Part shown: piece by piece, positions 757-22,451 of the stretch
How positions within the stretch are numbered: the first letter of the stretch is position 1
Layout: each line of letters opens with the position of its first letter
Assembly: GCA_017308375.1 (NCBI GenBank)
Contig: JAFKEW010000048.1
Coordinates: 1-64,000 of the forward strand
Direction: 5' to 3'
DNA length: 64,000 nt
Source: Alphaproteobacteria bacterium
GTDB taxonomy: Bacteria > Pseudomonadota > Alphaproteobacteria > Micropepsales > Micropepsaceae
Program-made: the position numbers and the translations under genes
The notes under the pieces: model-generated
Databases searched by the model: none
What the model was told of the DNA's origin: nothing
Seen by the model: only the letters and a program-made list of their open reading frames with translations

Positions 757-774
757 GGAGTGAATCTACACTCC
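757..774. terminator. hairpin between two convergent genes
   Basis: GGAGTG and CACTCC form a 6-bp stem around a 6-base loop, overlapping the stop codon of the SIR2 gene and lying 51 bases after the SRAP stop. There is no strong T-run, so termination is only suggested by position. Confidence 0.3.
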
Positions 775-3920: not shown

Positions 3921-6900
3921 TCAGTGAATCATGACTTCCCCAGACGCGCGAGGGTTTTTGCGGGTCTCCAGCTCGGCCGAGAGATCGGTCAAGCGCTGCG
4001 CCACGAGATGCACGACCTCGCCCTCGCGCTGGACGCGCCCGCGCACGGCGAACATGCCGGCCGACAGGATGATGCGGCGGTGCTTCTCGAAAACCTGCGG
4101 CCATACGACGAGATTGGCGATACCGCTCTCGTCTTCTAGCGTGATGAACATCACACCCTTGGCGCTGCCGGGGCGCTGACGGACCAGCACGATCCCGGCG
4201 GCCTCCAGCCATCGACCATCGCGGGCCTCCATCGCCTCCTTGCATGTGACGATGCGCCGACGGCGCAGATCGTCACGCAGGAAAGCGACCGGGTGGCTGC
4301 GCAGCGACAGGCCGATATGGCCGTAATCCTCCACCACCTCCGAGCCTGCCGTCATCGACCGCAGGACCACGGAGGGCTCGTTGACCTCCGGCACGAGCTG
4401 CTGCTCGCGGGCGGTGGCGGCCATGAAGAGGGGCAAGGGTTCGTCGGGCAGCGCCTTGATGGCCCAAAGTGCCTCTCGGCGCGCCAGACCGAAGGACGGA
4501 CGAAACCCGTCCGCTTCAGCAATCTGCGTGAGCGCCGCGACGGGCACGCCGGCCCGACGCCAAAGATCATCGACCGAGCCGAAGGACTGGTCCGCCCTGG
4601 CCGTGACGATCGCCCCGCCGTGGGCATTGGCGAGGCCTTTGACCATGCGCAGCCCCAGGCGAACGGCGAACCGCTCCTCGCTGCCGGTGGGCTCGAGTGT
4701 GCAGTCCCACCGGGACGCGTTGGCGCAGACCGGTCGGATCTCAACGCCATGATCGCGCGCGTCGCGGACGATCTGGGCCGGCGCGTAGAAGCCCATGGGC
4801 TGGCTGTTCAGCAGCGCGGCGCAGAAGATTTCCGGGTGCCAGCATTTCAGCCAGGCCGAGGCGTAGGCGATCAGCGCAAAAGAGGCTGCGTGACTTTCCG
4901 GAAATCCGTAACTGCCAAAGCCCTCAAGCTGCTTGAAGGTCTGCTCGGCGAACTCGGCCTCGTAGCCATTGGCGACCATGCCCGCGATCAGCTTGGCGCG
5001 AAAATGCGAGACACCTCCCGTGAACTTGAAGGTGGCCATCGACTTGCGGAGCATATCGGCCTCGCCAGGAGTAAAGCCGGCACATTCGATGGCGACGCGC
5101 ATCGCCTGCTCCTGAAAGAGCGGCACGCCGAGCGTCTTGCCGAGCACTTTCTCCAGTTCGGGCTTCGGATAGTCGACGGGCTCGAGGCCCTCCCGGCGAC
5201 GAAGATACGGATGCACCATGTCGCCCTGGATCGGACCGGGCCTGACGATCGCCACCTGGACGACGAGATCGTAATAGGTGCGCGGCTTGAGGCGAGGCAG
5301 CATCGACATTTGCGCCCGGCTCTCGATCTGAAAGGTGCCGAGCGTGTCCGCCTTGCGGATCATCGCGTAGGTGCGCGGGTCCTCGGCTGGGATGGAGGCG
5401 AGATCGAGATTGACGCCCTTGTGCTCGGCCAGGAGATCCAGCCCCTTCTTCATGCAGGTTAGCATCCCGAGCGCCAGGACGTCGACCTTCATGAACTTCA
5501 GGGCGTCGATGTCGTCCTTGTCCCATTCGATGACCTGCCGGTCCTTCATCGCGGCGGGCTCGATCGGCACGAGATCGTCGAGTCTGTCATGGGTCAGCAC
5601 GAAACCGCCAGGATGCTGGCTTAGATGGCGCGGCGCGCCCATGAGCTGCCGAGCGAGATCAAGCGTTAGGCGAAGCCTGCGATCGGCTAGGTTGAGATTC
5701 AACTCCTCGACATGCTTCTGCTCGACGCCTTCCTCCGACCAGGCCCAGACCTGCGACGACAAGGTGCCGATCAGGTCCTCGGGCAGGCCGAGGGCTTTGC
5801 CCACATCCCGCAGCGCGCCTTTGGTGCGATAGCGAATGACGGTCGAGCAGAGCGCGGCGTGATCGCGGCCGTAGGTGTCGAACACCCACTGCATGACGAT
5901 CTCGCGCCGCTCATGCTCGAAATCGACGTCGATGTCGGGCGGTTCGCGCCGCTCCTCGCTGACGAAGCGCTCGAAGAGAAGATCATTGCGGCCGGGATCG
6001 ATCGACGTAATGCCGAGGACGTAGCAGACCGCCGAGTTGGCCGCCGAGCCGCGGCCTTGGCAAAGGATGTCCTTTGATCGTGCGAAGCGGACGATCGAAT
6101 TCACGGTCAGGAAATACGGCGCGTAGTCGAGCTTCTCGATCAGCCGCAGCTCATGCTGAAGCGCGGAAGTCACACTGTCAGGCACGCCTTCCGGATAACG
6201 CTCTGTAGCGCCGTCCCAGGTGAGCTTCGCCAGCGTTTCCTGCGGGGTAAGCGCAGGATTGTCGCGTTCCTCGGGATATTGATAGGCCAGCTCGTCGAGG
6301 CTGAAGCGGCAGCGGTCTGCGATCTGTATCGTCCGGGCGAGCGCTTCGGGATAGCGGTTGCAAAGACGGTGCATCTCCTCGGGCGGCTTGATGTACCGAT
6401 CGGCGTGGCGCTCCCGCCGGTCGCCGATCGTGTCGATCGTGACGTTGTGCCGGATGCAGGAGACGACGTCCTGAAGGATGCGGCGGGCGGGCTCATGGAA
6501 GAGAACGTCGTTCGTTACCACGGTCGCAACCCGGATTTGGGCGGCCAGGTTCGACAGCTCGTGAAGGCGGAGCTGGTCGTTGGGCCGACGGCGCAGTGTC
6601 AGAGCCAAATAGGCCCGATCGCCGAACGCGTCGCGCAAACGGCGCAGCCGAAGGCCGCATTTCTCGTCGGCGAGATCCGGCACGAGGACGGCGATCAAGC
6701 CTTCGCCGTAGGCGACGAGGTCCTGCCATTCGAGGACGCACTTCGCTTTTCCACCGCGCCGCTTGCCGAGCGACAGCAGCCGGCAGAGACGGGAATAAGC
6801 GGGTCGATCGGTCGGATAGACCAGCACCGACATGCCGTCGGCGAGGTCGAGGCGGCAGCCGACGATCAGGCGGACGCCCGTCGTCTTCGCCGCCTCATGG

Positions 6901-7058
6901 GCGCGAACGATGCCGGCGAGCGAATTCCGGTCCACCACGGCCAGCGCTTCGATCCCGGCGAGCGCGGCCTGGGCGAACAGCTCCTCACAGGACGAAGCGC
7001 CCCGGAGGAAGCTGAAATGCGAGGTGACCTGAAGCTCGACATAGCGGGGCTCGCTCAT
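3921..7058 (-). CDS. dnaE2: error-prone DNA polymerase DnaE2 (ImuC), truncated by an IS element
   Basis: This is a C-family polymerase used in SOS mutagenesis together with ImuA and ImuB. The PHP domain starts at [20 protein letters not shown], followed by the polymerase core ([25 protein letters not shown]), the helix-hairpin-helix region and an OB-fold near the C-terminus. After native residue 1,030 (LTDLSAEL) the frame runs into the IS and adds 15 foreign residues before TGA, giving 1,045 residues. The last 60 native residues are lost. The ATG at 7058 overlaps the imuB stop (ATGA), implying coupled translation. The OB-fold looks complete, so activity is possible, but the conserved C-terminal tail is missing. 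Confidence 0.93.
3952..3969 (-). repeat. right terminal inverted repeat of the IS5-family element
   Basis: On the minus strand it reads GGAGACCCGCAAAAACCC, pairing with the left repeat at 16 of 18 bases. The second copy of the target duplication AGCT lies immediately outside at 3970-3973. Confidence 0.92.
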
Positions 7059-8575
7059 CCGAAGACCCCGTGAATGAACCAGCGGTGCGAGCCTGTGGCG
7101 ATGTCCTCGCCGTCGCCGGCGCGAAACAGCCAGTAGCGTTCGCCGGCGTCGTCCTCGACCCGGAAATAGTCGCGGACAGCAGCCAGCTCGGCATCGCGCT
7201 TCCACCATTCGCCGTACACGCGCTCGGGCCCGTCGCCACGCCGAAGGCGGCGGCGGATGCCGCGCCAAGTGAACGACACCGGCGGATGGTCGGGAAGCAA
7301 CGCCACGGTCTCGACCGGCTCAGGGGCCGGCAGAAGGCGGGAGGGCCGCGGCCAGTGGCCGGGCCAACCCGCTCCCGTATCGGCCGCCATCGCGGGGATA
7401 CGACAGACAGACCGCTCCGGAACATCGCTGGCGACCGGTGCAAGCCGATAGAGGGCACGCTCGCCCACGCGGTTCATCAAGGTGTCGATGAGATCGGAGA
7501 CGTCCGGGGTGCTCTCCTCGACCAGCGAGCTGACGATCTGCTTGCGCTCGAGCGGCTCAGCGACGCTTGCGGCGAGGGTCATCACCTCGATGCCGAAGCC
7601 GGGCGAGATGGTATCGATCTTGTCGCACAGGAGGCGCGTCAGCCGCTTCGCATCGCGGACCGGCGTGGCCATGCCGACCCGCACGGCCTGGGCCCGGCTA
7701 TCGACGCGGTGGCAGATGAGATCGAGCCTGCGTGCGCCGAGGCCGCCTTCCTCCAGACGTTCGCAAAGCTGGGTGACGAGCTTGCCGATGTAACGGGCGA
7801 TGGTCTCAGCCGCGCCGATCGGCTCGGCGAAGGCCCGGCGCACCTCGATGAGATCGGCCGGACGGACCGGCTCGATGATTTCGGCCGCAATGCCCAAGGC
7901 CTGGTCCAAGCGTCTGCCGAGTTCGGGGCCGAAGCGAAGGGTGAGCGGCGCGCGCGGCTGCGCCAGAAGATCGCCGACCGTTCGAAAGCCGAGCGTGCGC
8001 AGCGCCGCGATGGTGAGAGATGGAATGCGTAACGCCTCTAGCGGCAATCGCTCCAAGATGAGCGAGCCGTGGCCCTCGGGCGCGATGACAGCCGGCTGCG
8101 CTGAAAATCGGGCCAGCGCATGGGCTGCTCCCCAGGTGTCGGCGATCGCTCCTCTCGCGGAGATCCCGGACATGGCAAGGCGCCCGATCAAGCCATCCAG
8201 CATGACAGTCTCGCCGCCGTGGAGATGATCAGCGCCTGTCGAGTCGATGATGAGGCCGTCGGGCGGGTCGGGGGCGACGATTGGTGCATACCGGAGAAGC
8301 CACACCGCGAGACGCTCAAGCGCCTCGGCGTCGGCTGCCGGATCGGCATCCTGCACGATGAGGCCACGCGCCAGCACTTGCGCCTTGGTGACGGGCATGC
8401 CGGCGCGCAGGCCGCCGGCCTGGGCCGCAGCATCCGCCGCCAGCACCACCCGCCTTTTCCCGTCGCGGCCAATCAGGACGAGCGGCGCCTCAGTCGGAGG
8501 CGCCGCGTCGCCAGCCTTCCGCCGAAGCCGGTCGGTGGACCAGTTCGGCAGGAAGAGCGAGACGACCCGTGTCAT
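7055..8575 (-). CDS. imuB: ImuB, catalytically inactive Y-family polymerase-like mutasome protein
   Basis: The protein has 506 residues from the ATG at 8575, which gives the typical start [19 protein letters not shown]. The first 350 residues resemble the palm, fingers and little-finger domains of Y-family polymerases. ImuB proteins in general lack the catalytic acidic residues and bridge the beta clamp, ImuA and DnaE2. The C-terminal part is the ImuB-specific domain. The gene overlaps imuA by 86 bases at its start and dnaE2 by 4 bases at its end, so the three genes form one operon controlled from the LexA box before imuA. A longer in-frame start exists but lacks family similarity. Confidence 0.93.
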
Positions 8576-9242
8576 CGCACGCCTCCAACTCGAAATCTGC
8601 ACTTTCGCCCGCTCGCGCGCGGATGAGTTCAACCAGCCAGCGGGCGCGGCCTACGCCGGGAACAGGCAGCGGCGTCGAGGGCAGCGCGGACACACGCCAG
8701 CGCGTCATCGCCGCGGTCGGCTGGCCAAAATCCGTTGCCTCTGTCTGTCGCCGCCAGCGCCGCAAGGCGATCCCAAGCGAGCCTGTGCCTTCGGCCGCCA
8801 ATTGCAGCCGCCGCGACGCCGTCATGGATAGGCGGGCGACCTCGCCGATCACGGCCCCGAGGCCGCCATGTCGTAAGCCTTCCTCCATGCACGCGAGCAC
8901 GGTCTTGTCGTCGCCAGCTTCGAGATAGATCACGCGGTCGCTTGCAAGGCCCGCCTGGGCGATGGCCGGAGCAAACAGGTCCGCGCGCGTAATGCACCAG
9001 AGGATTTTACCCTTGGTGCGGGCGGCGACACCTGCGCTGAAAGACGCTGCCGCCGCGCCGTCGACAGCGCCATTGCCGCCACCGGCTATTTCATGCAGCG
9101 CGCCGAAGGCTAGGCCGCCACCAGGAAGTCGTGAGTCCACCTCGGTGATCCCGAAGGGGAGCACCGATTTGGCGCGCCGGCTTCTGCCTTCGATCTTTTC
9201 GATCTGCGCGCGCAAAGACTCTATGGCGGGCTCGGGCCGCAA
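8490..9242 (-). CDS. imuA: ImuA, SOS mutagenesis protein (RecA/SulA-like fold)
   Basis: This 250-residue protein has the ImuA pattern FGITEVDSRLPGGGLAFGALHEIAGGG near the N-terminus and a RecA-like core (ILWCITRADLFAPAIAQAGL; VIYLEAGDDKT). ImuA works with ImuB to bring DnaE2 to lesions; the Walker A motif of true RecA is not conserved here. The start is TTG with GGAGG 12 bases upstream. The LexA box lies 37 bases upstream of the start codon. The 86-base overlap with imuB is long but both frames are well conserved in character. Confidence 0.9.
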   Translation of the reverse strand: MRPEPAIESLRAQIEKIEGRSRRAKSVLPFGITEVDSRLPGGGLAFGALHEIAGGGNGAVDGAAAASFSAGVAARTKGKILWCITRADLFAPAIAQAGLASDRVIYLEAGDDKTVLACMEEGLRHGGLGAVIGEVARLSMTASRRLQLAAEGTGSLGIALRRWRRQTEATDFGQPTAAMTRWRVSALPSTPLPVPGVGRARWLVELIRARAGESADFELEACDDTGRLALPAELVHRPASAEGWRRGASD

Positions 9243-9294: not shown

Positions 9295-9355
9295 TATCCT
9301 TTGCGTCTTGGAGTCAAGCGGTAGCTTAGAATCTCCATAGGGAATTGACTGCCTG

Positions 9356-9382
9356 CATAGAGTTGCGTAAGGTTGCTCTATG
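9356..9382 (+). promoter_or_regulatory. inverted repeat covering the helicase start codon, possible operator
   Basis: CATAGAG (9356-9362) and CTCTATG (9376-9382) are perfect inverted copies separated by 13 bases, and the second copy contains the ATG of the downstream gene. That gene's product has an N-terminal MerR/excisionase-like DNA-binding domain, so autoregulation is an attractive guess. Confidence 0.4.
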
Positions 9383-11434
9383 TCACAGAATGATGCCCCT
9401 GATTTCCTAACCCTAGCTGAGGCCGCTGAGTACGTCGGCGTTTCGAAGGACACCCTTCGCCGGTGGGATGCCTCCGACAAGCTCAAGCCGGTGCGCCGGC
9501 CAGGAAGCGGCTATCGCTTCTATCGCCGGCCCGACCTTGAGCCCTTCCGCCTCGAGTATCGGCGCGCTGAGCAGGCCGCCGACGAGCCGGACCACATGTT
9601 TCAGACGCTAACTGTGGACATTGAGGCGAACCCCAAGATCCGCGAGCCGCAGCAGGGCGCCCACCGTGCAGTGCGGACCCACTTCGACGCTTCGAACGAG
9701 CCGGTGATCTTGCAGATTCCCGTCGGATGCGGAAAGACCGGCGTCATTGCGACATTGCCCTTCGGCGTCGCCAAAGGGCGCGCGCTCGTCATCACGCCGA
9801 ACTTGACGATCCGGTCGGGCGTCGCGGAATCGCTCGACATCAGCAACCCGAAGAATTTCTGGCGGCGGACGGGGGCGCTCCACGATTTTTCCGCAGGGCC
9901 GTTTCGCGCCGTCCTGGATGGCGTCGACGCCAATCTCCACGACTGCAACGCGAGCCAGTTCGTCGTGACCAACATCCACCAATTGGCCAGTTCGGCCGAT
10001 CGTTGGCTCCCGCAGTTTCCGCCGAACTATTTCGACATGATCATGATCGACGAGGGCCACCACAACGTGGCCCCGAGCTGGGCGAAGGTCTTCGATCGCT
10101 TTCCGAACGCCAAGGTCGTCAGCCTGACCGCGACGCCGTTCCGAGGTGACGGAACCCGGCCGGTCGGCAAGGTGATCTATCGCTACCCGTTCACGCGGGC
10201 GATGGTGAAGGGGTACATCAAGCAAATCCACTCCCGGAACGTCGCGCCGTCGGAGTTGTCCTTCACCTACCGCGACGACACGAAACGGCACACCCTGGAA
10301 GAGGTGATGGCGTTGCGGGAACATGCCTGGTTCAGGCGGGGCGTCGCGTTGGCGCCCGAGTGCAATCGGCACATCGTCGAAGCCAGCATCAAGTATCTGC
10401 AGGAGCTGCGAGAGCGAAGTGGTTTCCGCCACCAGATTATCGCCGTCGCCTGTTCCGTCGACCATGCCCGCCAGGTGCGCGGGCTGTATGAGGAACGGGG
10501 CCTGAAGGCGGCCGAAATCTACGGTGAAATGGATCGAGACAAGCAGGATGCCGTTCTTGCCGATCTGCGCAGCGGCAAGCTCGATTGCATCGTGCAGGTG
10601 CAGATGCTCGGTGAAGGCTTCGATCACCCGCCCCTTAGCGTTGCGGCCATCTTCCGGCCGTTCGCAAGCTTGTCGCCTTACATCCAGTTCGTCGGGCGCG
10701 TGATGCGCGTTGTCCATGAGGCGAAGCCCGACCACCCGGACAACCACGCCTTTGTGGTTTCCCATGTGGGCTTGAACACCGACGCCCATTGGGACGATTT
10801 CCGCGAACTCGATTTCGATGACCAGGCGATGGTCAAGAAGTGGCTGGAGGCTGGTGACGAGAATGGCGATGGCGACGGCTCAGGAGAGCCCCGCCGCTTC
10901 GACATCGGAATGCTGGTCGATAACGAGATCGTCGGCTCGTTCATCAATCGGTCGTTCCTTGATCCGGAAGACGATCGCGTCCTCGAGGAGATGCTGGACC
11001 ACGAGATCGGCGCCGGCCTCCGCCTGCGCGACGTCATCGCGAAGGACAAGCTCAGGGAGACGCTGCGGCGAAAGCAGGCGGAGCTTTCCCAGGTCAGCAG
11101 TGCTGGCGACCTCCCGGTGCAGCCGCAGGCGCGGCGGGTTGGCGCACGCAAGCGGCTCTCCGAACGCACAGGCTCCGTCGTCGCCCGCATACTCAAGGAT
11201 CTGAAACTTTCGCCCGCCGGCCGCGAGGTCGGCCAGCGAGACAAGACCGTAGCGGGGCGCGACAACCGAGCCGCCGTCACGTCGCTGCTAAACAAGGCGG
11301 TCAACGAACACCTCGGAATCAAGGCCGGGAGCCGCAAAACGACCGATGCAGGTGACAACGAGGATGCGCTGGCTGCACTCGACATGCTGGGAGACACCGT
11401 GCGCGACTCCCTCAAGGGGAAGAACGATGGCTAA
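9380..11434 (+). CDS. HTH-fused SF2 (DEAD/DEAH, type III restriction-like) helicase
   Basis: The 684-residue protein starts with a MerR/excisionase-type helix-turn-helix (residues about 10-55, LTLAEAAEYVGVSKDTLRRW). An SF2 helicase follows: Walker A PVGCGKT (114-120), Walker B DEGHH (224-228), SLTATP, and a second RecA domain with QFVGRVMR as motif VI. The last 200 residues are charged and unassigned. No nuclease motif was recognised. SF2 proteins of this kind occur in many defence islands, but a covalent HTH is less usual. It overlaps the next gene by 8 bases and heads a plus-strand group that runs towards the Gabija-like pair. The LexA box is 85 bases upstream of its start. Confidence 0.85.
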   Translation: MSQNDAPDFLTLAEAAEYVGVSKDTLRRWDASDKLKPVRRPGSGYRFYRRPDLEPFRLEYRRAEQAADEPDHMFQTLTVDIEANPKIREPQQGAHRAVRTHFDASNEPVILQIPVGCGKTGVIATLPFGVAKGRALVITPNLTIRSGVAESLDISNPKNFWRRTGALHDFSAGPFRAVLDGVDANLHDCNASQFVVTNIHQLASSADRWLPQFPPNYFDMIMIDEGHHNVAPSWAKVFDRFPNAKVVSLTATPFRGDGTRPVGKVIYRYPFTRAMVKGYIKQIHSRNVAPSELSFTYRDDTKRHTLEEVMALREHAWFRRGVALAPECNRHIVEASIKYLQELRERSGFRHQIIAVACSVDHARQVRGLYEERGLKAAEIYGEMDRDKQDAVLADLRSGKLDCIVQVQMLGEGFDHPPLSVAAIFRPFASLSPYIQFVGRVMRVVHEAKPDHPDNHAFVVSHVGLNTDAHWDDFRELDFDDQAMVKKWLEAGDENGDGDGSGEPRRFDIGMLVDNEIVGSFINRSFLDPEDDRVLEEMLDHEIGAGLRLRDVIAKDKLRETLRRKQAELSQVSSAGDLPVQPQARRVGARKRLSERTGSVVARILKDLKLSPAGREVGQRDKTVAGRDNRAAVTSLLNKAVNEHLGIKAGSRKTTDAGDNEDALAALDMLGDTVRDSLKGKNDG

Positions 11435-11669
11435 AGTCAGGGACATTCTGATCGACGTGAAGATCGAGCAGGCGCAGCGCCAACGCAAATGTCGGCGGAA
11501 CACTTCGCACACGATCTCCAAGGGAGAGTGGTGTCTCGTCGTTCGGACGAACGCGACCAACGACGACTACAGTTACAGCCGGGACGCTGCGAAGCCGATG
11601 CTCGATGCGGCCTGGGCGAAGCTCAAGACCATCTATGAAGGGCTAGGAATGTCACCGCCTGGGAGCTGA
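11427..11669 (+). CDS. small conserved-looking protein of unknown function
   Basis: The product has 80 residues from ATG 11427 (MAKVRDILIDVKIEQAQRQR). It is basic in its first half (RQRKCRRN), contains the stretch TISKGEWCLVVRT and then a helical tail (DAAKPMLDAAWAKLKTIYEGLG). Its start overlaps the helicase stop by 8 bases, which argues that it is a real, coupled gene. No family was recognised; a helicase partner or regulator is possible. Confidence 0.65.
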   Translation: MAKVRDILIDVKIEQAQRQRKCRRNTSHTISKGEWCLVVRTNATNDDYSYSRDAAKPMLDAAWAKLKTIYEGLGMSPPGS

Positions 11670-11680
11670 GGGAACAGGGT

Positions 11681-12148
11681 ATGGGAGACGGATACAACTT
11701 TCAGCAGCTTAAGGCCGCGATCTTGACGCTGAGCCGGGCCACCGATTGGGAAGTTGCCAAAAAAGAATGGCGGCTTGTCGAGATTTCCGAAGCCGACGAG
11801 CCCGAGACCTGTCTGTGCGGTCATTTCCCTATCATCGAGTTGTGTACCATCTCCAACGCTACGACCGCGAAGTCGGTGGACGTCGGCAACGTCTGTGTGA
11901 AGAGGTTCTTGGGCTTCCGCTCCGATCTAATTTTCCAATCTCTAAAACGTGTCCGAGCCGACCTGGATAAGGCTATTGGCCCGGATGCAACCGCGTTCTT
12001 TCACGAACGCGGGGTTATCAACGATTGGGAGTATCAGTTCCAGCAGAGCACAATGCGCAAGCGCAACCTGTCTGCGCGGCAGTTGGCGAGTAGGCGCGTG
12101 ATAAATCAAAAGGTGATCGCGGCAGTAAGACGTCGCGGCCTCTCATAG
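11681..12148 (+). CDS. Cys/His motif protein of unknown function
   Basis: The 155-residue protein has a compact motif ETCLCGHFPIIELCTISN followed by VGNVCVKRF (residues about 45-80), giving CxCGH-x6-C and a further Cys, which looks like a metal site or small zinc ribbon. The N-terminal part (WEVAKKEWRLVEI) and C-terminal basic helices (MRKRNLSARQLASRR) flank it. It starts 11 bases after the previous small gene and is co-directional with the helicase. I do not recognise a named family. Nucleic-acid binding is an inference from the motif and the basic tail. Confidence 0.65.
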   Translation: MGDGYNFQQLKAAILTLSRATDWEVAKKEWRLVEISEADEPETCLCGHFPIIELCTISNATTAKSVDVGNVCVKRFLGFRSDLIFQSLKRVRADLDKAIGPDATAFFHERGVINDWEYQFQQSTMRKRNLSARQLASRRVINQKVIAAVRRRGLS

Positions 12149-12285
12149 CGGGGCGCCTCGCCAACAAGAAAGTGCCTCGAAAAGACTTTGCGGGAGTCGA
12201 CTGCTGCTATCGGTCAAAGAAAAGTATAACGCGAAAATGATTTGCGGATGATGTTACCGCAGACCGGGGTTGGGGGACGCTAACA

Positions 12286-14673
12286 GTGCATATCGAATTT
12301 TTAGAGATCGCCAATTTCAGGAAATTATTGTCGACGCGGGTCGATCTTTCAACCACGACCACACTTTTCGTCGGAGCGAACAACAGCGGCAAGACATCGG
12401 CGATGCTTGCGCTACGGCGCTTCCTGTCGCCGCGGCGCTGCCCGTTCGAGATGCACGATTTCACGTTGTGCCATTGGCCCACGATCATCGCCTTGGGCGC
12501 GGCGTGGATAGCTGCGCGGAACGCGGAGGAAATCGTCGACCTGGTCATCGATCCCTGGGTTAGCACGTTGCCGACTCTGGACCTGTGGCTGCACGTCGAA
12601 GCGGGGGAGATGCACCACGTTCGCGACCTCATCCCAACCTTGGATTGGGAGGGGGGACGACTCGGCGTTCGGCTACGCTACGAGCCGAAGGACCTTGCGC
12701 TCTTGTACAAGGAGTACATGGGCGCGGTGAGCGATGCCGAGACGATGAGGGCGGCCGCCGTCGCGGCCGCTGCGGCGGAGAATCCCGACGCTGATCCGCC
12801 TGCTGCTCCGCCCAAGCTGACAATCTGGCCCGAGAGTCTGATCGATTTCCTGAGCAAGCGTTTGTCGACGCACTTCACCATTCGGGCTTATTCGCTGGAT
12901 CCGGGTCAGCTTGTCGCTCCTGCAAAATCACTGGCGCGTCCGCAGGTCCTTCCGGGCGGGGCTCGGCCGATCGATGGCGACCCGCTGAGCGGCTTGATCC
13001 GCGTTCATGACATACCGGCGCAGAGGGGCTTCGGTGAAGAGCAGCAGGCGGCGGAGGATGATGATGCTCCTGCGGCGGCGAGCGGCAGTCGCCTGTCCGA
13101 CCAGCTCAGAAGCTACTACTCCAAACACCTTGACCCGACGAAGGGACCTGATCCGAAGGACCTTGGCGCGTTGCAGGCGATAGAAGCCGCCCAGGACGCG
13201 TTCGACAAGCGGCTGACCGAGAGTTTCAAGGCAGCGTTCACCGAGGTCGAGGGTATGGGATACCCCGGCGTGACCGATCCGCGCCCGCGCGTTTCGACAC
13301 GCTTGAAAGCAATCGACGGTCTCAATCACAACGCGGCGATCAGCTTCGAGGTGGACGTCATTGCCGAGGACGGCGCGACGACCCCGGTGTTGCGATTGCC
13401 CGAGGCTAATAACGGCCTCGGCTATCAAAACCTGATCTCGATGATATTCCAGTTGATGAGTTTTCGTGACGCCTGGATGCGCGTCGGGAAGGCATCAACC
13501 GGCGCGACGGTGACGACGACCGAGCCTCTCCATCTCGTCCTGGTCGAGGAACCGGAAGCGCATTTGCACGCGCAGGTCCAGCAAGTCTTCATCAAGAAGG
13601 CTTATGCAGTGCTGCGTGCGCACGAGGACCTTGGTGACAGCCAAAAGCTGCGCACCCAATTAGTTGTCAGCACCCATTCGAGCCATGTAGCGCATGAGAC
13701 GTCGTTCTCTTGCCTGCGCTACTTCCGGCGGCTGCCTGCGGGTATGGCCGCGAAAGTGCCGGTCTCCACTGTTATCAATCTGTCGGAGGTTTTTGGTCCC
13801 GGGAGTGAGACCGAGCGTTTCGTGACCCGATATCTTCGGGCCCAGCACGCGGATCTGTTCTTCGCCGACGCGGCCATTTTGGTGGAGGGTCCAGCGGAAC
13901 GTATGCTCGTCCCCAATTTCATCCGGGCGCACTATGACGAGCTCAACCAATGCTACATCACCCTGCTTGAGATTGGAGGAAGCCACGCGCATCGTCTCAA
14001 GCCTTTGATTGATCATCTCGGCTTGCTGACCCTGATTATCACTGACCTGGATACGCTGGATAAAGCGGGGGGCGCCTCCGTCCCACCCGCGAAAGGCGCT
14101 GGTCAGAAAACCAATAATGCGACGTTGAAGACATGGGTGCCAAAGCTCGACGACGTCGATGAGCTGATGCGAGCTGATGCCGCGACGAAGACGCTACATG
14201 AGGACGACGACCCACTATTTGCTGTGCGGGCCGCGTATCAGATCCCGTTGGGTCTGACGTCCCCGGGTATTGTCGGACCGGAGGTCGCGTATCCTTATAC
14301 GTTTGAGGATGCCCTGGCGTTCGAGAATCTCAGCTTCTTCGCCGGACTGGATGGCACCGGCCTGGTCCGCAAGTTTCGAGATGCGATCGCTGATGGTGGT
14401 GGGGCGGCCGCGATCGGCGGGAAAATGTACCTCGCTCTCAAGAACGGCAAGAAGGCTGAGTTTGCGCTTGACGTGATGGAGGTGGAGAATTTCGACACGA
14501 TCGTCGTGCCGCGTTACATCGCCGAGGGACTTGAGTGGCTGCTCGCGCAGCTCAAGAAAAAGCAGGTTGAGATTCTGCCTCTGGTCAAGGAGGCGCCACC
14601 CGAAGAGGAGGTCGACGCTGACCCGCCGGAGGAAGTGCTTGTCGTCGCTGAAATCGAGGGGGCCGATGCATGA
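12286..14673 (+). CDS. OLD-family ATPase/TOPRIM nuclease, GajA-like (Gabija)
   Basis: The 795-residue protein begins with an ABC/SMC-type ATPase: Walker A GANNSGKT (30-37), Walker B LVLVEEPEAHLH (417-428) and switch His464 (STHSSH). A TOPRIM domain follows, with ILVEGPAE (Glu534) and TDLDTLD (Asp587/Asp589). This order is that of OLD nucleases and of GajA, which nicks DNA in the Gabija anti-phage system. It is about 200 residues longer than typical GajA; much of the excess is between the ATPase motifs, including an acidic linker (about 250-268). The start is GTG after GGGGGAC. It overlaps the UvrD-like gene by 4 bases, the pairing expected for Gabija or class 2 OLD. Confidence 0.85.
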   Translation: MHIEFLEIANFRKLLSTRVDLSTTTTLFVGANNSGKTSAMLALRRFLSPRRCPFEMHDFTLCHWPTIIALGAAWIAARNAEEIVDLVIDPWVSTLPTLDLWLHVEAGEMHHVRDLIPTLDWEGGRLGVRLRYEPKDLALLYKEYMGAVSDAETMRAAAVAAAAAENPDADPPAAPPKLTIWPESLIDFLSKRLSTHFTIRAYSLDPGQLVAPAKSLARPQVLPGGARPIDGDPLSGLIRVHDIPAQRGFGEEQQAAEDDDAPAAASGSRLSDQLRSYYSKHLDPTKGPDPKDLGALQAIEAAQDAFDKRLTESFKAAFTEVEGMGYPGVTDPRPRVSTRLKAIDGLNHNAAISFEVDVIAEDGATTPVLRLPEANNGLGYQNLISMIFQLMSFRDAWMRVGKASTGATVTTTEPLHLVLVEEPEAHLHAQVQQVFIKKAYAVLRAHEDLGDSQKLRTQLVVSTHSSHVAHETSFSCLRYFRRLPAGMAAKVPVSTVINLSEVFGPGSETERFVTRYLRAQHADLFFADAAILVEGPAERMLVPNFIRAHYDELNQCYITLLEIGGSHAHRLKPLIDHLGLLTLIITDLDTLDKAGGASVPPAKGAGQKTNNATLKTWVPKLDDVDELMRADAATKTLHEDDDPLFAVRAAYQIPLGLTSPGIVGPEVAYPYTFEDALAFENLSFFAGLDGTGLVRKFRDAIADGGGAAAIGGKMYLALKNGKKAEFALDVMEVENFDTIVVPRYIAEGLEWLLAQLKKKQVEILPLVKEAPPEEEVDADPPEEVLVVAEIEGADA

Positions 14674-16577
14674 GCGCGGTCGACGACAAATTCGATTCCG
14701 AAGCCGATGAAACGATCCTCGCCTGCCTGAACGTCGAGAAGCCGAGGAGCTTCTTTCTCTATGCTGGCGCCGGGTCGGGCAAGACGCGTTCGCTCGTCGA
14801 GGCGATCCGGACGGTGTGTAAGGAGCAGGGCCGGAGGTTGTCGCTATCCGGTCAGAAGATCGGAGTGATTACCTACACCAATGCCGCCTGCGACGAGATC
14901 AAGCAACGGCTCGAGTTCGATCCTCGGGTAGAGGTGTCGACCATTCACGCGTTCGCGTGGTCGCTGATTGCCGGCTACGACGGTGATATTCGTGGGTGGC
15001 TGGCGACACGGCTCCTTGCGGATATCGCAGAGCTGGAGGAAGCACAGGCGAAGGGGCGGCCAAACAGCAAAGCCGCTTCGGATCGCGCTCGCTCGATAGA
15101 AAGCAAGCGGCGTCGCCGCGAGAATCTCGCCGAGATCACGCGATTTGTTTACAGCCCCACGGGCGACAACCGCACGCGGGACTCTTTGAGCCACGCAGAG
15201 GTCATTGCCATGACCGCTGATTTTCTCGGCGCGAAGCCTGGTTTGCGCCGGCTGCTTGTAACCCGATTCCCCATTCTGCTGATCGACGAGAGCCAGGATA
15301 CGAGCCGAAGGCTCATGGAAGCGCTGCTCGATGTCGAGGCGGGATACCGCGAGGCCTTTTGCCTCGGACTCTTTGGCGACACGATGCAGCGCATCTACGC
15401 CGACGGGAAGGAGCGTTTAGCGGAGGCTATCCCGCAGGCCTGGGCCAGGCCGAGGAAGCGAATGAACCATCGTTGCCCCACGCGGGTCATCGCGCTCATC
15501 AACAAAATTAGACGAGATGAGGATGGCGAGGAACAGCAGCCACGCAGCGATGCTAAACAGGGTGTGGTTCGGCTGTTCGTCGTCTCGCAGGCGATAGCCG
15601 ACAAGAGCGCCGCCGAGGCCACCGCAGCGGCGCGTATGGCAGAGCTCACGGCCGATCCGAACTGGGCGGCCGGAGCGGAAGCGATCAAGACGCTGGCGCT
15701 GGAGCACCTGATGTCCGCGCGCCGGTTTGGCTTCGAACAATTCTTCGAGCCCCTCTACGCGGTTGAGCGCATCCGCACGAGCTTTCTGCAAGGGACCGGA
15801 GCGGGCATCGGACTTTTCACGCGCGAGATACTGCCGCTGGTCACGGCCCTGCGCGCGGGAGATCGGTTTGCTGTCGCTGCGGTCGTTCGGCGCACATCTC
15901 CACTCCTCGAGCGCAAGGCGCTTGAAGCTGCGGGCGAGAAGCAGGTTGGCCTTCTCAGCGAGGTTAAGGCTGCTTGCGATGGCCTGCTGGCCTTGGTGAA
16001 CGCGGAAGCGAAGCCGACTGCGCGCTCGGTCTTGCGCTATGTCGCCGAAGCTAACCTCTTCACGATACCCGAGGTGCTCGTTCCGTTTTCCGCCGCCGAT
16101 GCCGTCGTCGTGGAAGGCGAGGGTGACGCAGCCGGCGACGCCGACGACCAGGAAGAAGAAGTCGATGTCAAAAGCGAGTTGGGCGGTTGGCGGTTGGCGC
16201 TTGAGGCGCCGTTCGACCAGATCGAGCGATATGATCGCTACGTTCGGGGCATCTCGCAGTTCGACACGCATCAAGGGGTAAAAGGGCTAGAATTTCCAAG
16301 GGTGATGGTTGTCGTTAGCGACGATGAAGCCCGCGGTTTCATGTTCGCTTACGACAAGCTTTTCGCGACAAAGGCGAAGAGCAAGACGGATCTTGATAAT
16401 GAAGCTGCCGGCAAGGAGACAACGATCGATAGGACGCGACGGCTGTTTTACGTGACCTGCAGCCGCGCTGAAGAGAGCCTTGCCGTTGTGTATTACGCAA
16501 CTGATCCCGCGCTCGCGCGCGACGCAATGATCAGACAAGGTTGGTTCGAAGCCGGTGAGATAGAATTGATCTCATAG
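14670..16577 (+). CDS. UvrD/PcrA-like SF1 helicase, GajB-like (Gabija)
   Basis: This 635-residue protein is an SF1A helicase: Walker A GAGSGKT (33-39), a TYTNAACDEI motif Ia, IDESQDTS (205-212) as motif II, QGVKGLEFP as motif V and RRLFYVTCSRAEE as motif VI. A long, acidic insert (EGEGDAAGDADDQEEEVD) lies before motif V. In Gabija, GajB senses DNA ends and activates GajA. ATGA coupling with the OLD gene supports a two-protein complex. It is somewhat longer than the usual 500 residues of GajB. A general repair helicase is less likely given the neighbour. Confidence 0.87.
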   Translation: MSAVDDKFDSEADETILACLNVEKPRSFFLYAGAGSGKTRSLVEAIRTVCKEQGRRLSLSGQKIGVITYTNAACDEIKQRLEFDPRVEVSTIHAFAWSLIAGYDGDIRGWLATRLLADIAELEEAQAKGRPNSKAASDRARSIESKRRRRENLAEITRFVYSPTGDNRTRDSLSHAEVIAMTADFLGAKPGLRRLLVTRFPILLIDESQDTSRRLMEALLDVEAGYREAFCLGLFGDTMQRIYADGKERLAEAIPQAWARPRKRMNHRCPTRVIALINKIRRDEDGEEQQPRSDAKQGVVRLFVVSQAIADKSAAEATAAARMAELTADPNWAAGAEAIKTLALEHLMSARRFGFEQFFEPLYAVERIRTSFLQGTGAGIGLFTREILPLVTALRAGDRFAVAAVVRRTSPLLERKALEAAGEKQVGLLSEVKAACDGLLALVNAEAKPTARSVLRYVAEANLFTIPEVLVPFSAADAVVVEGEGDAAGDADDQEEEVDVKSELGGWRLALEAPFDQIERYDRYVRGISQFDTHQGVKGLEFPRVMVVVSDDEARGFMFAYDKLFATKAKSKTDLDNEAAGKETTIDRTRRLFYVTCSRAEESLAVVYYATDPALARDAMIRQGWFEAGEIELIS

Positions 16578-17291: not shown

Positions 17292-18455
17292 CTAGATGTT
17301 TCCAGCCGGTCGTGTGATCCGGGGGCGGCGCGTGTCTGGAATGGGCGGCGGCTGCGTCGCGGTCAGTAATCCCTCTTCGGCCGCTTTCTGCGGGTCCATG
17401 AACGTCATGCGATCGGCGATATATTCGCCCAAGGCTTCAGGGTTCTCCTTTGATGGAATCGGCGCATCGTATGTGAGCGGCAGGAAGGCGGTGAGCGCGA
17501 TCCTGTAGAGCGGCGCGGCGTACTCGAAGATGGTGCGCTGAGGCGTGGCGAGCAGCAGCGTGCTCCGGTCCACGGGATTGCCGTGAAGGAAATCGTTTCG
17601 GCAAACATAGAGCGTCTCGACCAGCCATGACGCCAGAGTCCGTTTCACCTTCGTCTTCCCGCCGGTGTCATGTGCGAGCTGGCCGCTGGCCGGAATCGCC
17701 CACCGCGTCCGCTCGATCAGCTCGAACACCTTTTTACGATCCGCCTGACCGCTTCCGCCCGGGTGAACCAGAATTTCAAAAGCGCTGACCCAGAGCGAGA
17801 CGATCCGGCCGACATCATAGAACGTCGTGTCGGTCCCGGCGGGCAGGAGCGAAGCCTGGTAGGCCATGTTGAGTGAACGCATCAGCGCCACGTCCTCCCA
17901 TGCCGGCTCATGGGCCTCATATCGGCGGCGCCAACGTGCCAACAGCGCGCTGAGGAGTGGTTCGTCGATGTCGCTCGCCGCGAGCGGCGTGCGGAAGATG
18001 GTCGGTGATGACTGGCCTCGGAAGCTAGACACCATATGCGTCCCGAGGATGGCCGGTGTGCTGCCGATGACGTCCTTGTAATGCCGGTCGAGCATCCACG
18101 GGTAGATCGCGAAGGCCTCGCCGAACAGAACGCGGTGCCCGCGCGGATAGCGAAGCTCCATAGCGCGCCCGTGGGTGATGGCCGACAGTGCGATGGTGTC
18201 TCGGAAACTTCCCAGGGCGGCGACGTCGCGGAAGCGTGGTGGCGCATCGGCATCGAGCAGGAGGACGGCCGGCTCGAACTTCTCTCCGAAATTATCCGTG
18301 AAGCGATTGAGGAATTGCTTGAACGTCGGATGGGCGCGCTTCAGGGCTTTGACGCGAGGGTCATGAGCCGGCGCGATCGCCGCGATCTCGCAGTCGACGG
18401 CCTGGTCGAGGGGCACGTTGGGCAGGACGAACACCGGCGTCCATTCGACGGTCAT
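17292..18455 (-). CDS. HEPN-motif protein of unknown function
   Basis: The 387-residue product contains CRNDFLHGN near residue 285, with Arg286 and His291 forming the RX4H signature of HEPN ribonucleases, set in a helical region (FELIERTRWAI; TLASWLVETLYVCRNDFLH). The rest, including ALSAITHGRAMELRYPRGHRVLFGEAFAIYPW, has no family that I recognise. ApeA-like HEPN proteins have similar size and layout. A GAGGA ribosome site precedes the ATG. It lies between the Cys/His protein and the exported nuclease in the integrase operon. An RNA-cleaving abortive-infection role is inferred from the motif only. Confidence 0.7.
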   Translation of the reverse strand: MTVEWTPVFVLPNVPLDQAVDCEIAAIAPAHDPRVKALKRAHPTFKQFLNRFTDNFGEKFEPAVLLLDADAPPRFRDVAALGSFRDTIALSAITHGRAMELRYPRGHRVLFGEAFAIYPWMLDRHYKDVIGSTPAILGTHMVSSFRGQSSPTIFRTPLAASDIDEPLLSALLARWRRRYEAHEPAWEDVALMRSLNMAYQASLLPAGTDTTFYDVGRIVSLWVSAFEILVHPGGSGQADRKKVFELIERTRWAIPASGQLAHDTGGKTKVKRTLASWLVETLYVCRNDFLHGNPVDRSTLLLATPQRTIFEYAAPLYRIALTAFLPLTYDAPIPSKENPEALGEYIADRMTFMDPQKAAEEGLLTATQPPPIPDTRRPRITRPAGNI

Positions 18456-18478: not shown

Positions 18479-19678
18479 CTAGCCGGGGGGCTGTTCGCTC
18501 TTCCATAGGCGATGCTGCTCGCGCAGCTCCGCCTCGATCGCCGCTAGCCGGGCCCCGTAATCCAGGCCGTTTGCGCTTCTGGCGGCGACCTCGGAGGACG
18601 CAATGACGAGACGCCACGCGCCATAGTCGTGAAAGGGATTGAGTCCAATGACGTTGCCGAGCGCGAGATCGCTGGGCGGCGGCGCGGCCAACAGCTTCGC
18701 GAAGGCTGTGGTCGCGGCGATCATGTTCCAATCGGAGACGAACAACACCAGCGCGCAGAGGGCAAGCAGAACGGGTGGAGCGCCTTTCCATCGATAAATT
18801 TCGGGATGTCGCTTACCGAAATCGATGCCGCCGTTCGCAGCGACGAAGGTGCAGAGCGAGATCGCGGCCTCATAGTAGGGCTGGAGTTTGGTGGCGTCGA
18901 AAACCTCGCGCCCATGGTTTTTCCGGGCGAGCTCGGCCGCCTGTCGCCACGTCGCCTCTTCGAAAGGCAGGATGCCGCCTTTCACCAGATCGAACAGATC
19001 GAGGTGCTCTTCGGTGAATTGCTTCTTCGCGGCGGCTTTCCAATCGAAGGCCGGCATGTCGCCTTGGGAGGGGTGGAACGGCCAGCGCTGATGGTAGGGA
19101 TGTCGCTGGAGCGCCTGTGTCCATGGGATCGCCTCTAGCGGCAAGGACACCGTGAAGCGGGTGGCGGACTTGAGATCGAAAAACCACTGCCGCATGTCCC
19201 GGATGCGACGTTGGTCAAAGATACCCTGCTCTATGCCCTTGCAGACGAGAAGCCGGATTGCGCGCGTTTCTACGCTTTTTTCTGATCCGAAGTCGAAAAG
19301 GCTGTCCTGAGTCGAGCGCGTTTCGTCGTCGCCGTAGAATTCACAGAACGGATGATGGGCGTCGCCGCCGCTGGGATCGACAAATCTGAAATGTGCCTGT
19401 CGGAGAACCGCCTTAGAGGCCCGAGATCTTGCCGATCGAACGACGCCAGCACCGAATTTGCCGCACGATGAGCATTGAATATCGGCGCGGATCGCATCGC
19501 CAAACCCGCTGAGAAGTTCAGCCCCGTCGCGGTCCTGCGTTGGTTGTGCGCCGGTCATCAGGGTCGCGAGCTGGTCAACGTCGAGTTCGCGCGCGAACCT
19601 TATAGAAAATGCAGTTGCTGGCATTTGCCTCCCCAGCGCCTTGATCGTATGCGCCGATCGAGCGACGCGACTACACAC
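18479..19678 (-). CDS. Cys/His-rich hypothetical protein in the integrase operon
   Basis: The protein has 399 residues if it begins at GTG 19678, which overlaps the DUF1016 stop by one base (TAGTG), or 381 from ATG 19624 with a close GGGGAGG site. CSSCGKFGAG and, some 40 residues on, DAHHPFCEFYGDD give C-x2-C and H-H-x2-C, a likely metal-binding site. The C-terminal half contains a hydrophobic stretch (APPVLLALCALVLFVSDWNM). I recognise no family. Its place between a nuclease and a HEPN-motif gene suggests a shared function with them. Confidence 0.65.
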   Translation of the reverse strand: MCSRVARSAHTIKALGRQMPATAFSIRFARELDVDQLATLMTGAQPTQDRDGAELLSGFGDAIRADIQCSSCGKFGAGVVRSARSRASKAVLRQAHFRFVDPSGGDAHHPFCEFYGDDETRSTQDSLFDFGSEKSVETRAIRLLVCKGIEQGIFDQRRIRDMRQWFFDLKSATRFTVSLPLEAIPWTQALQRHPYHQRWPFHPSQGDMPAFDWKAAAKKQFTEEHLDLFDLVKGGILPFEEATWRQAAELARKNHGREVFDATKLQPYYEAAISLCTFVAANGGIDFGKRHPEIYRWKGAPPVLLALCALVLFVSDWNMIAATTAFAKLLAAPPPSDLALGNVIGLNPFHDYGAWRLVIASSEVAARSANGLDYGARLAAIEAELREQHRLWKSEQPPG

Positions 19679-21057
19679 TACTTATCAATATTGGTGTTCT
19701 TCGTGGAGTGGTCAGTCATCTCGTTTATTGTCCTGAGATCAGCAAGGAAAGCCGTGCCGATTTCCACGGCCCGCTTGGCCGCGTCCGACTCGACATCCAC
19801 GCCGTGCGACGCCTCAAGCATGGATTGCAGGACGCCGTGCATTTGCCTGATGCTGGCTGTAGAAATCCCCAGGCCTTGCAGTTTGCCGAGCATCTGCGAG
19901 ATGCCCATCCGGCGCGGATCGATGCCCTTAGCGACGACGAGTTCACGCAGGGCGCGCTCGATTTCGATACGAAGCTTGACGACCGACATGAGCGGGAATT
20001 CCCGCCCAAGCTCCTCGACCGTCGGGAGATCTTCTTGGAGCTGAGGAGGGAGCGCCTGCGAAAGTTGATATTGAGCCACCCCCATCGGCTTGCTCGAATC
20101 TCGCAAGGCGTACTCGACGATCACCTCGTTGCGTCCCTTGCACAGGATGATGCCGATCGTCGGCTTGTCGTCGGGATGGCGCAATTGCTCGTCCACGGCC
20201 GACAGATAGAAATTCATCTTGCCCGCGAACTCGGGTTTGAAATCCTCGATCTTCAGCTCGATCACCACGAAGCAGCGCAGTCGCAGATGGTAGAACAGCA
20301 GGTCGAGGTAATAATCCTGCCCGCCGACTTCGAGATGGTACTGGCTGCCGACGAAGGCGAAGCCCTTGCCGAGTTCGAGGATGAGCGAGCGGAGGTGTTC
20401 GATCAGGCCGCGTTCGAGATCGCGCTCCAACATTTCGGGGCCGAGCGAGAGGAAGTCGAACGTATAGGGGTCTTTGAGAATCTGCTGGGCCAGCTCGGAT
20501 TGCTCCGCCGGAAGAGTCCGCGAGAAGTTGGTCAGCGCGCTTCCTTGACGGGCGAAGAGATTGCTTGCGATCTGGTGGGCGAGAACGTTCCGGCTCCAGC
20601 CGTACTCGATTGTCTGCCGGGCATACCAAGCGCGTTCTTCAGATGCCTTGGTGGCATCGAGAAGGAGCATGTTGTGGCCCCATGGCAATTGTGCAGCAAG
20701 CTGCTGCACAAATTCGCCGTCGGGCCAGGCCTCGGCGAAGGTGCGCATATATTTCAGGTTTCGGGCTGAAAGTCCGGTCATCTCGGGAAAGGCTTGGCGG
20801 AGGTCCTCCGACAGCCGGTCGATGACCTTGGCGCCCCAACCCTCGCGCTCCTGCCGACTCAGAATATCGCGACCGATAGTCCAATAGAGCATCACCAGCT
20901 CGCGATTGATGGACAGGCCGGCCCGGTGGCGGGCAGCGGCGATCTTCTGCTTCAGGTCTCCGACGAACGCGGCGTAGGTGTGTGCATTGACCTCGGTCGA
21001 GGGAGCGGAAGCCCTCGCTCGCCGAGAATGGACGGGTTTCGGCGGCCGAGAGGTCAT
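19678..21057 (-). CDS. PD-(D/E)XK nuclease-domain protein, DUF1016 (YhcG-like)
   Basis: The product has 459 residues from ATG 21057, whose ATGA overlaps the integrase stop. The N-terminal DUF1016_N region is recognisable (LYWTIGRDILSRQEREGWGA; FPEMTGLSARNLKYMRTFA), as is the C-terminal nuclease domain with YYLDLLFYHLRLRCFVVIELK, which supplies the Asp and the Glu-x-Lys of a PD-(D/E)XK site. YhcG-type proteins are implicated in DNA processing or recombination and often sit in restriction-modification or mobile contexts. A longer upstream start only reads into integrase sequence. The last 100 residues are helical and may be a C-terminal extension. Confidence 0.88.
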   Translation of the reverse strand: MTSRPPKPVHSRRARASAPSTEVNAHTYAAFVGDLKQKIAAARHRAGLSINRELVMLYWTIGRDILSRQEREGWGAKVIDRLSEDLRQAFPEMTGLSARNLKYMRTFAEAWPDGEFVQQLAAQLPWGHNMLLLDATKASEERAWYARQTIEYGWSRNVLAHQIASNLFARQGSALTNFSRTLPAEQSELAQQILKDPYTFDFLSLGPEMLERDLERGLIEHLRSLILELGKGFAFVGSQYHLEVGGQDYYLDLLFYHLRLRCFVVIELKIEDFKPEFAGKMNFYLSAVDEQLRHPDDKPTIGIILCKGRNEVIVEYALRDSSKPMGVAQYQLSQALPPQLQEDLPTVEELGREFPLMSVVKLRIEIERALRELVVAKGIDPRRMGISQMLGKLQGLGISTASIRQMHGVLQSMLEASHGVDVESDAAKRAVEIGTAFLADLRTINEMTDHSTKNTNIDK

Positions 21058-22295: not shown

Positions 22296-22381
22296 GGCGT
22301 TCCTCCTGGTCCCGCAACTGGGATCGGTCGAGGAGAAACGGGGATCGTTTGCTGGGATCGGAAAGCCGTTTTCAATACCTC

Positions 22382-22412
22382 TAACCGCCCCCAATTTGCC
22401 ATAACCGCCCCC
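22382..22412. repeat. paired 11-base direct repeats near the island end, possible integrase arm sites
   Basis: TAACCGCCCCC occurs at 22382-22392 and again at 22402-22412, exactly 20 bases apart. They lie between the integrase start and the radC junction, where arm-type integrase binding sites are usually found. The function is inferred. Confidence 0.4.
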
Positions 22413-22451
22413 TGTACGCAACGCGCAAAAAGCAGCTATTTCATTGATGAT

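What the first reader, a model, noticed from the sequence alone, without database searches (positions are those of the whole stretch)
9380..16577. Gabija-like pair embedded in a five-gene co-directional cluster
The OLD/TOPRIM and UvrD-like genes overlap by 4 bases like gajA-gajB. Upstream, on the same strand, are an HTH-fused SF2 helicase, an 80-residue protein and a CxCGH protein, tightly packed. A five-component set with two different helicase classes is not the standard two-gene Gabija and may be an extended variant or two systems side by side.
Basis: partly seen in the sequence, partly recalled or inferred. Interest (0 to 1): 0.72.

Follow-up and report, generated by a model that had tools for sequence, protein, structure and literature searches.

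The report
Gabija beside an undescribed helicase–zinc-finger cassette
The five genes are not one enlarged defence system: they are an ordinary two-gene Gabija anti-phage system sitting directly behind an independently mobile cassette, made of a DNA helicase and a tiny zinc-finger-like protein, that recurs beside many different bacterial defence systems and may be an undescribed one.

Summary
All five genes are real, at the stated places, and under purifying selection. 12286–16577 is a standard Gabija pair (GajA E=1.7e-278, GajB E=3.6e-249; motifs intact). The three upstream genes are not part of it. DNA homology to relatives splits cleanly: the upstream cassette matches others over 9338–12147, and Gabija matches a different set over 12198/12260–16571. 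Near-identical Gabija (95.7%) occurs without the cassette, and no other locus examined has both.

The cassette's core is two genes. The HTH–SF2 helicase (HEL) is followed directly by the ~80-residue protein (S80) in 29 of 29 intact loci, across Alpha-/Gammaproteobacteria and Actinomycetota, down to 5.9-kb plasmids. Prophage-type and Leptospira homologues carry a different small protein in that slot. The CxCGH gene is an optional third member (6 of 29). HEL–S80 lies next to Gabija, Shedu, Lamassu, SIR2–pAgo, Hachiman, AbiE, RosmerTA or PDC-S37 in eight loci; 29 control genes gave no defence hit. S80's predicted fold is closest to PARP-type zinc fingers, weakly (E≈0.07). No library used here holds HEL–S80 as a unit.

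Verdict: two systems side by side. "Extended Gabija" is refuted; HEL–S80 is a candidate undescribed defence unit whose function is inferred.

The parts
9380..11434 (+). HEL: SF2 helicase (XPB/RadD/ResIII-like core) with N-terminal MerR/excisionase-type HTH, 684 aa
   Evidence: Pfam MerR, ResIII, Helicase_C; motifs intact; 16-member alignment; dN/dS 0.02-0.04
11427..11669 (+). S80: small zinc-finger-like partner of HEL, 80 aa; relatives carry C-x5-H or C-x2-C plus C-x2-C, but the window copy has lost the distal pair (YSRDAA)
   Evidence: HMM found it directly behind HEL in every intact locus; fold nearest zf-PARP; dN/dS 0.04-0.07
11681..12148 (+). CGH: CxC...C...C zinc-binding-type protein, 155 aa, optional third gene of the cassette; also widespread alone
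   Evidence: C44, C46, C55, C72 invariant in a 21-sequence alignment; 80 plasmid records; with HEL-S80 in 6 of 29 loci; confident model without a PDB match
9338..12147 (+). extent of cassette HEL-S80-CGH by DNA homology to L034 and L040 (about 90%)
   Evidence: blastn
12286..14673 (+). GajA: OLD-family ABC ATPase + TOPRIM endonuclease
   Evidence: PADLOC GajA E=1.7e-278, profile 1-729/736; Pfam AAA_15, OLD-like_TOPRIM
14670..16577 (+). GajB: UvrD-like helicase
   Evidence: PADLOC GajB E=3.6e-249, profile 3-624/625
12198..16571 (+). extent of Gabija cassette by DNA homology to L165 (12260-16571 for L164, 12259-16570 for L166), 91-92%
   Evidence: blastn

Best explanation
Two independently mobile defence-associated units abut within one genomic island. 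Unit 1 is a HEL-S80 operon with an optional CGH gene; unit 2 is a canonical two-gene Gabija. Gabija presumably works as described for the family: a GajA-GajB complex whose nuclease is regulated by nucleotides and which aborts infection (established for the family, not shown here). For HEL-S80 the most likely mechanism is a RadD/XPB-like double-strand DNA translocase whose zinc-finger module is supplied in trans by S80. S80 would recognise nicked, broken or branched DNA, such as phage replication intermediates, and position HEL to remodel it and block phage or plasmid propagation. The HTH fused to HEL would add DNA binding or autoregulation. Shown: gene order, linkage, module boundaries, motif integrity, selection, neighbourhood. 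Inferred: anti-phage function, S80 as DNA-structure sensor, HEL-S80 contact. The confidence given is for the two-unit statement; defence function of HEL-S80 is put at about 0.55 and its detailed mechanism at about 0.3.
For: Separation: the cassette matches L034/L040 over 9338-12147 and Gabija matches L164-L166 from 12198/12260 to 16571. In 385 alphaproteobacterial genomes, four others have HEL, seven others GajA, and none has both. GajA 95.7% identical in Rhizobium NLR16a has no cassette. Unit: S80 directly follows HEL in 29 of 29 intact loci (window plus 27 loci and L180; an IS sits between them in L031), including 5.9-kb plasmids where the pair follows rep; prophage-type HELs have another 105-150-aa partner in that slot. 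Defence association: neighbours are Shedu (L005), Lamassu (L033), SIR2-pAgo (L034), Hachiman HamA+HamB (L035), AbiE (L037), PDC-S37 (L038), RosmerTA RmrA (L040), Gabija (window); 29 control genes from the same window gave no hit at 1e-40. Mechanism: the HEL profile matches XPB and RadD structures and partly the RadD family; RadD has two zinc fingers in cis behind its helicase core (PMC9049331), whereas HEL has no cysteine after residue 403; most of the top 22 fold matches of S80 are PARP-1 zinc fingers, probability up to 0.99, and one S80 member hits Pfam zf-PARP at E=0.01.
Against: No defence assay exists for HEL-S80. The S80 fold matches are weak (E at least 0.065, TM about 0.4-0.5), and the window copy lacks the distal cysteine pair, so zinc binding in this clade is doubtful. 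Some HEL-S80 loci (L023, L024, L043) show no defence neighbour. The linkage count includes close relatives, and the S80 profile was partly trained on genes found beside HEL. Defence islands attract unrelated genes, so adjacency is indirect evidence.
Confidence: 0.85

Rival explanations
1. An extended five-component Gabija in which HEL, S80 and CGH are accessory subunits of GajAB.
For: All five genes are co-directional and close together.
Against: Homology breaks between CGH and GajA; near-identical Gabija without the trio; HEL-S80 with many other systems; no second five-gene locus found in any collection searched.
Confidence: 0.04
2. HEL-S80 is a DNA-repair, replication or plasmid-maintenance module like RadD that merely rides on mobile elements and islands.
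For: Core resembles RadD/XPB repair enzymes; on the 5.9-kb plasmid HEL overlaps the end of rep; in the window it lies beside imuA-imuB-dnaE2, and in Mesorhizobium L037 the same genes lie about 6 kb away.
Against: Patchy in genomes (4 of 384 other alphaproteobacteria); repeated adjacency to different defence systems; cargo of prophages.
Confidence: 0.3
3. HEL-S80 is a general sensor or regulatory head that switches on whatever defence genes lie downstream.
For: In the window, L005, L033, L035, L037 and L038 the known defence genes downstream point the same way; HEL has a DNA-binding HTH.
Against: In L034 and L040 the neighbouring system points the other way; small plasmids carry HEL-S80 with no recognised defence system.
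Confidence: 0.1
4. HEL-S80 is part of a PsyrTA-like system: a split helicase, ComF-type phosphoribosyltransferase and SLOG/DprA-like protein.
For: Ten close HEL loci have a divergent SLOG-HTH gene plus ComF-type phosphoribosyltransferase just upstream; the latter hits the phosphoribosyltransferase part of the PADLOC PsyrT profile and HEL weakly the helicase part.
Against: The pair is absent beside the window's HEL, the transferase was not found in the genome (no positive control), and more than half of the HEL loci lack it.
Confidence: 0.07

Closest known systems
Gabija (GajA-GajB; class 2 OLD + UvrD-like helicase)
   Same: Full-length PADLOC GajA and GajB, 4-nt overlap, catalytic motifs intact
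   Different: Large GajA (795 aa against 575-598 aa in most solved GajA chains) of a distinct subgroup; best phmmer match to solved GajA chains only over 417-604
RadD (YejH) repair helicase
   Same: XPB/RadD-like SF2 core; zinc-finger function associated with the motor
   Different: HEL has an N-terminal HTH and no zinc fingers in cis; a separate small zinc-finger-like protein is encoded next door; NCBIfam RadD score 78.5 against cut-off 720
Hachiman (HamA-HamB)
   Same: SF2 helicase plus partner, two-gene defence operon
   Different: S80 is not HamA and HEL does not match HamB models; a true Hachiman lies next to HEL-S80 in L035
PsyrTA
   Same: Helicase, phosphoribosyltransferase and SLOG parts occur together in ten loci
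   Different: Separate divergent genes, absent from the window
PARP-type zinc finger (PF00645)
   Same: Best predicted-fold matches of S80; C..C/H...G...C..C pattern in relatives
   Different: Not recognised by Pfam in the window copy (one relative at E=0.01 only); the window copy keeps only part of the metal site

Membership tests
Gabija | GajA: ABC ATPase + TOPRIM (class 2 OLD), full length | tested here: met
   PADLOC 1.7e-278 over 1-729/736; TOPRIM PF20469 1.4e-17; motifs intact
Gabija | adjacent UvrD-like GajB | tested here: met
   PADLOC 3.6e-249 over 3-624/625; 4-nt overlap
Gabija | anti-phage activity of the pair | not testable with these tools
   needs a plaque assay
Extended five-gene Gabija | recurrence of all five genes together | tested here: not met
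   none among 385 genomes or in the viral, plasmid and GTDB loci examined; homology break at 12148-12198
RadD | RadD equivalog score | tested here: not met
   78.5 bits against cut-off 720
RadD | zinc fingers C-terminal to the helicase core | tested here: not met
   no cysteine after residue 403 in HEL
Hachiman | HamA (DUF1837) + HamB | tested here: not met
   no HamA or HamB hit for HEL, S80 or CGH
PsyrTA | helicase-phosphoribosyltransferase toxin with DprA-like antitoxin adjacent | tested here: not met
   no such genes beside HEL in the window; present as separate genes in ten relatives
zf-PARP | Pfam PF00645 match / metal site | tested here: inconclusive
   one of 15 S80 members at E=0.01; fold nearest zf-PARP but E at least 0.065

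The most novel reading that the evidence does not exclude
HEL-S80 is an undescribed, phylum-crossing mobile defence system: an SF2 translocase paired with a free-standing bacterial PARP-type zinc-finger-like protein that senses nicked or branched foreign DNA. The small-partner slot is swappable by clade, optional third genes occur (CGH, or a 586-residue protein of unknown family), and it travels next to many other systems.
Probability: 0.35. Interest if true: 0.72.

Novelty: new variant of a known kind. Interest (0 to 1): 0.55.

Why it matters
It prevents a false "extended Gabija" annotation and exposes a recurrent two-gene helicase–small-protein operon, absent as a unit from PADLOC 2.0, Pfam and NCBIfam, that sits beside at least eight different defence systems and on tiny mobilisable plasmids. 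If it is defensive it would be a compact system with a possible bacterial counterpart of the PARP-type nick-sensing zinc finger, and it is small enough for a direct cloning test.

Tried and rejected
Extended Gabija: rejected on module boundaries and co-occurrence. A fixed upstream trio: rejected, CGH is optional and independent. HEL as known RadD, Hachiman or type I/III/IV restriction helicase: only core-domain similarity. CGH identity: no Pfam, PADLOC, NCBIfam, PHROG or PDB match; weak similarity to uncharacterised viral proteins. CGH in sequenced phages: none. Non-coding RNA in 1–24000: no Rfam match. Promoter scan of the 137-bp gap: no co-directional promoter-like site found, and the scan is not informative for this organism. 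Literature searches on RadD-like helicases, zinc fingers and phage defence returned nothing describing this pair; subscription papers and bioRxiv are largely not covered. The first S80 alignment failed on a wrong coordinate and was redone; one Pfam call failed likewise and was redone in part.

Full report
OBSERVATION. The five genes are present at the given coordinates on the + strand. HEL and S80 overlap by 8 nt, S80 and CGH are 11 nt apart, CGH and GajA are 137 nt apart, and GajA and GajB overlap by 4 nt. All are under strong purifying selection against close relatives (dN/dS 0.02–0.10).

GABIJA. GajA and GajB match PADLOC models end to end (E=1.7e-278 and 3.6e-249), and their ATPase, TOPRIM and helicase motifs are intact. 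This is a regular Gabija, of a large-GajA subgroup. The published Gabija mechanism is that of class 2 OLD nucleases with a UvrD-like partner, a GajA–GajB complex acting by abortive infection (PMC10568477); I did not test it.

THE FIVE GENES ARE TWO UNITS. BLASTN against relatives shows a sharp module boundary. L034 and L040 match the window from 9338 to 12146/12147 and stop at the end of CGH. The Gabija relatives L164, L165 and L166 match from 12260, 12198 and 12259 to about 16571 and share nothing upstream. In 385 alphaproteobacterial genomes, HEL occurs in four others, GajA in seven others and clear CGH homologues in two others, with no overlap between the sets. Gabija loci checked with profiles for HEL, S80 and CGH had none of them, including one whose GajA is 95.7% identical; some of those loci carry only short flanks.

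WHAT THE UPSTREAM CASSETTE IS. S80 follows HEL immediately in all 29 intact loci examined: the window, 27 loci, and L180 from a further genome not used to build the profile (E=5e-19). The loci span Alpha- and Gammaproteobacteria and Rhodococcus, from chromosomes to 5.9-kb mobilisable plasmids. In L031 an IS element lies between the two genes. Truncated or contig-end loci (L004, L050) are not counted. Prophage-type, Leptospira and Peribacillus homologues carry a different 105–150-aa protein in the same slot in nearly every case. So the unit is "helicase plus small partner". CGH is an optional third gene (6 of 29) and is found alone on many plasmids, for example near ThiF/multiubiquitin genes, HTH–ImmA pairs or methyltransferase–helicase genes. 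In ten close relatives a divergent SLOG-HTH plus ComF-type phosphoribosyltransferase pair sits upstream; the window lacks it.

DEFENCE NEIGHBOURHOOD. Within about 10 kb of HEL–S80 lie Shedu (L005), Lamassu (L033), SIR2–pAgo (L034), Hachiman HamA+HamB (L035), AbiE (L037), PDC-S37 (L038) and RosmerTA RmrA with a HamB-like helicase (L040), plus Gabija in the window. Twenty-nine ordinary genes from the right side of the same window gave no PADLOC hit at 1e-40. Because the neighbour differs each time, HEL–S80 is not a subunit of any one of them. Some loci (L023, L024, L043) have no recognised defence neighbour. In L003, L027 and L029 the gene after S80 encodes a 586-residue protein without a Pfam or PADLOC match.

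MECHANISM (INFERRED). The HEL core is XPB/RadD-like. E. coli RadD carries two zinc fingers behind its helicase core, and mutation of one abolishes function (PMC9049331). HEL has none (no cysteine after residue 403), and a small zinc-finger-like protein is encoded next door. AlphaFold gives S80 a mean pLDDT of 83.5. Its nearest solved folds are PARP-1 zinc fingers, DNA-break-binding domains (probability up to 0.99, but E at least 0.065 and TM about 0.4–0.5); one relative also hits Pfam zf-PARP at E=0.01. In relatives the metal ligands are C-x5-H or C-x2-C followed by C-x2-C; the window copy keeps C22 and H28 but has lost the distal pair, so it may bind zinc poorly or differently, although it is still under purifying selection. 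I therefore propose a split RadD-like translocase in which S80 supplies recognition of DNA ends, nicks or forks. CGH has a confident model (pLDDT 91.6) without any PDB match.

CONTEXT. The cluster lies in an accessory island running from the contig start to a tyrosine integrase beside a radC-like gene (about 22.4 kb), with a SIR2-like gene, imuA–imuB–dnaE2, an SNase and a YhcG/DUF1016 nuclease (the radC, SIR2 and imu names are read from the sequence). imuA itself is accessory in this genus (2 of 41 genomes).

CONCLUSION. Ordinary Gabija beside an independently mobile HEL–S80(–CGH) cassette. The first half is known biology. The second is a recurrent, apparently undescribed operon with strong circumstantial but untested links to defence. 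The confidence of 0.85 refers to the two-unit statement; the defence function of HEL–S80 I put at about 0.55, and its detailed mechanism at about 0.3.

Noticed in passing
L033:8307-9851 (also L003, L027, L028, L029, L031, L032, L034, L040, L050): Divergent SLOG-HTH plus ComF-type phosphoribosyltransferase pair upstream of HEL in ten loci; the transferase matches the phosphoribosyltransferase part of the PsyrT profile.
   Followed up: partly
L003:10354-12114; L027:12354-14114; L029:12310-14115: A 586-601-residue protein with a possible PD-(D/E)XK-like stretch (read by eye) directly after S80 in three otherwise unrelated loci; no Pfam or PADLOC match.
   Followed up: partly
L059-L076, L048, L049: Prophage-type, Leptospira and Peribacillus homologues of HEL with a different 105-150-aa partner in the same slot, many near one end of the viral contig.
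   Followed up: partly
window 19678-21111 (-): YhcG/DUF1016 nuclease (PADLOC PDC-S02) next to two unclassified genes (17292-18455 and 18479-19678, - strand) and a tyrosine integrase (21054-22421).
   Followed up: no
window 766-2409 (-): 547-residue protein whose start looks SIR2-like (read by eye), another likely defence gene at the left end of the island.
   Followed up: no
window 3921-9242 (-): imuA-imuB-dnaE2 mutagenesis cassette carried on the island; imuA found in only 2 of 41 genomes of the genus.
   Followed up: partly
L164:12550-15069: PDC-S28 candidate helicase directly after the 95.7%-identical Gabija, a different neighbour from the window's.
   Followed up: partly
L031:7561-8727: IS5-type transposase gene inserted between HEL and S80.
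   Followed up: no
L006, L010: CGH next to ThiF / multiubiquitin / DUF6527 genes on alphaproteobacterial plasmids, suggesting a separate association with ubiquitin-like systems.
   Followed up: no
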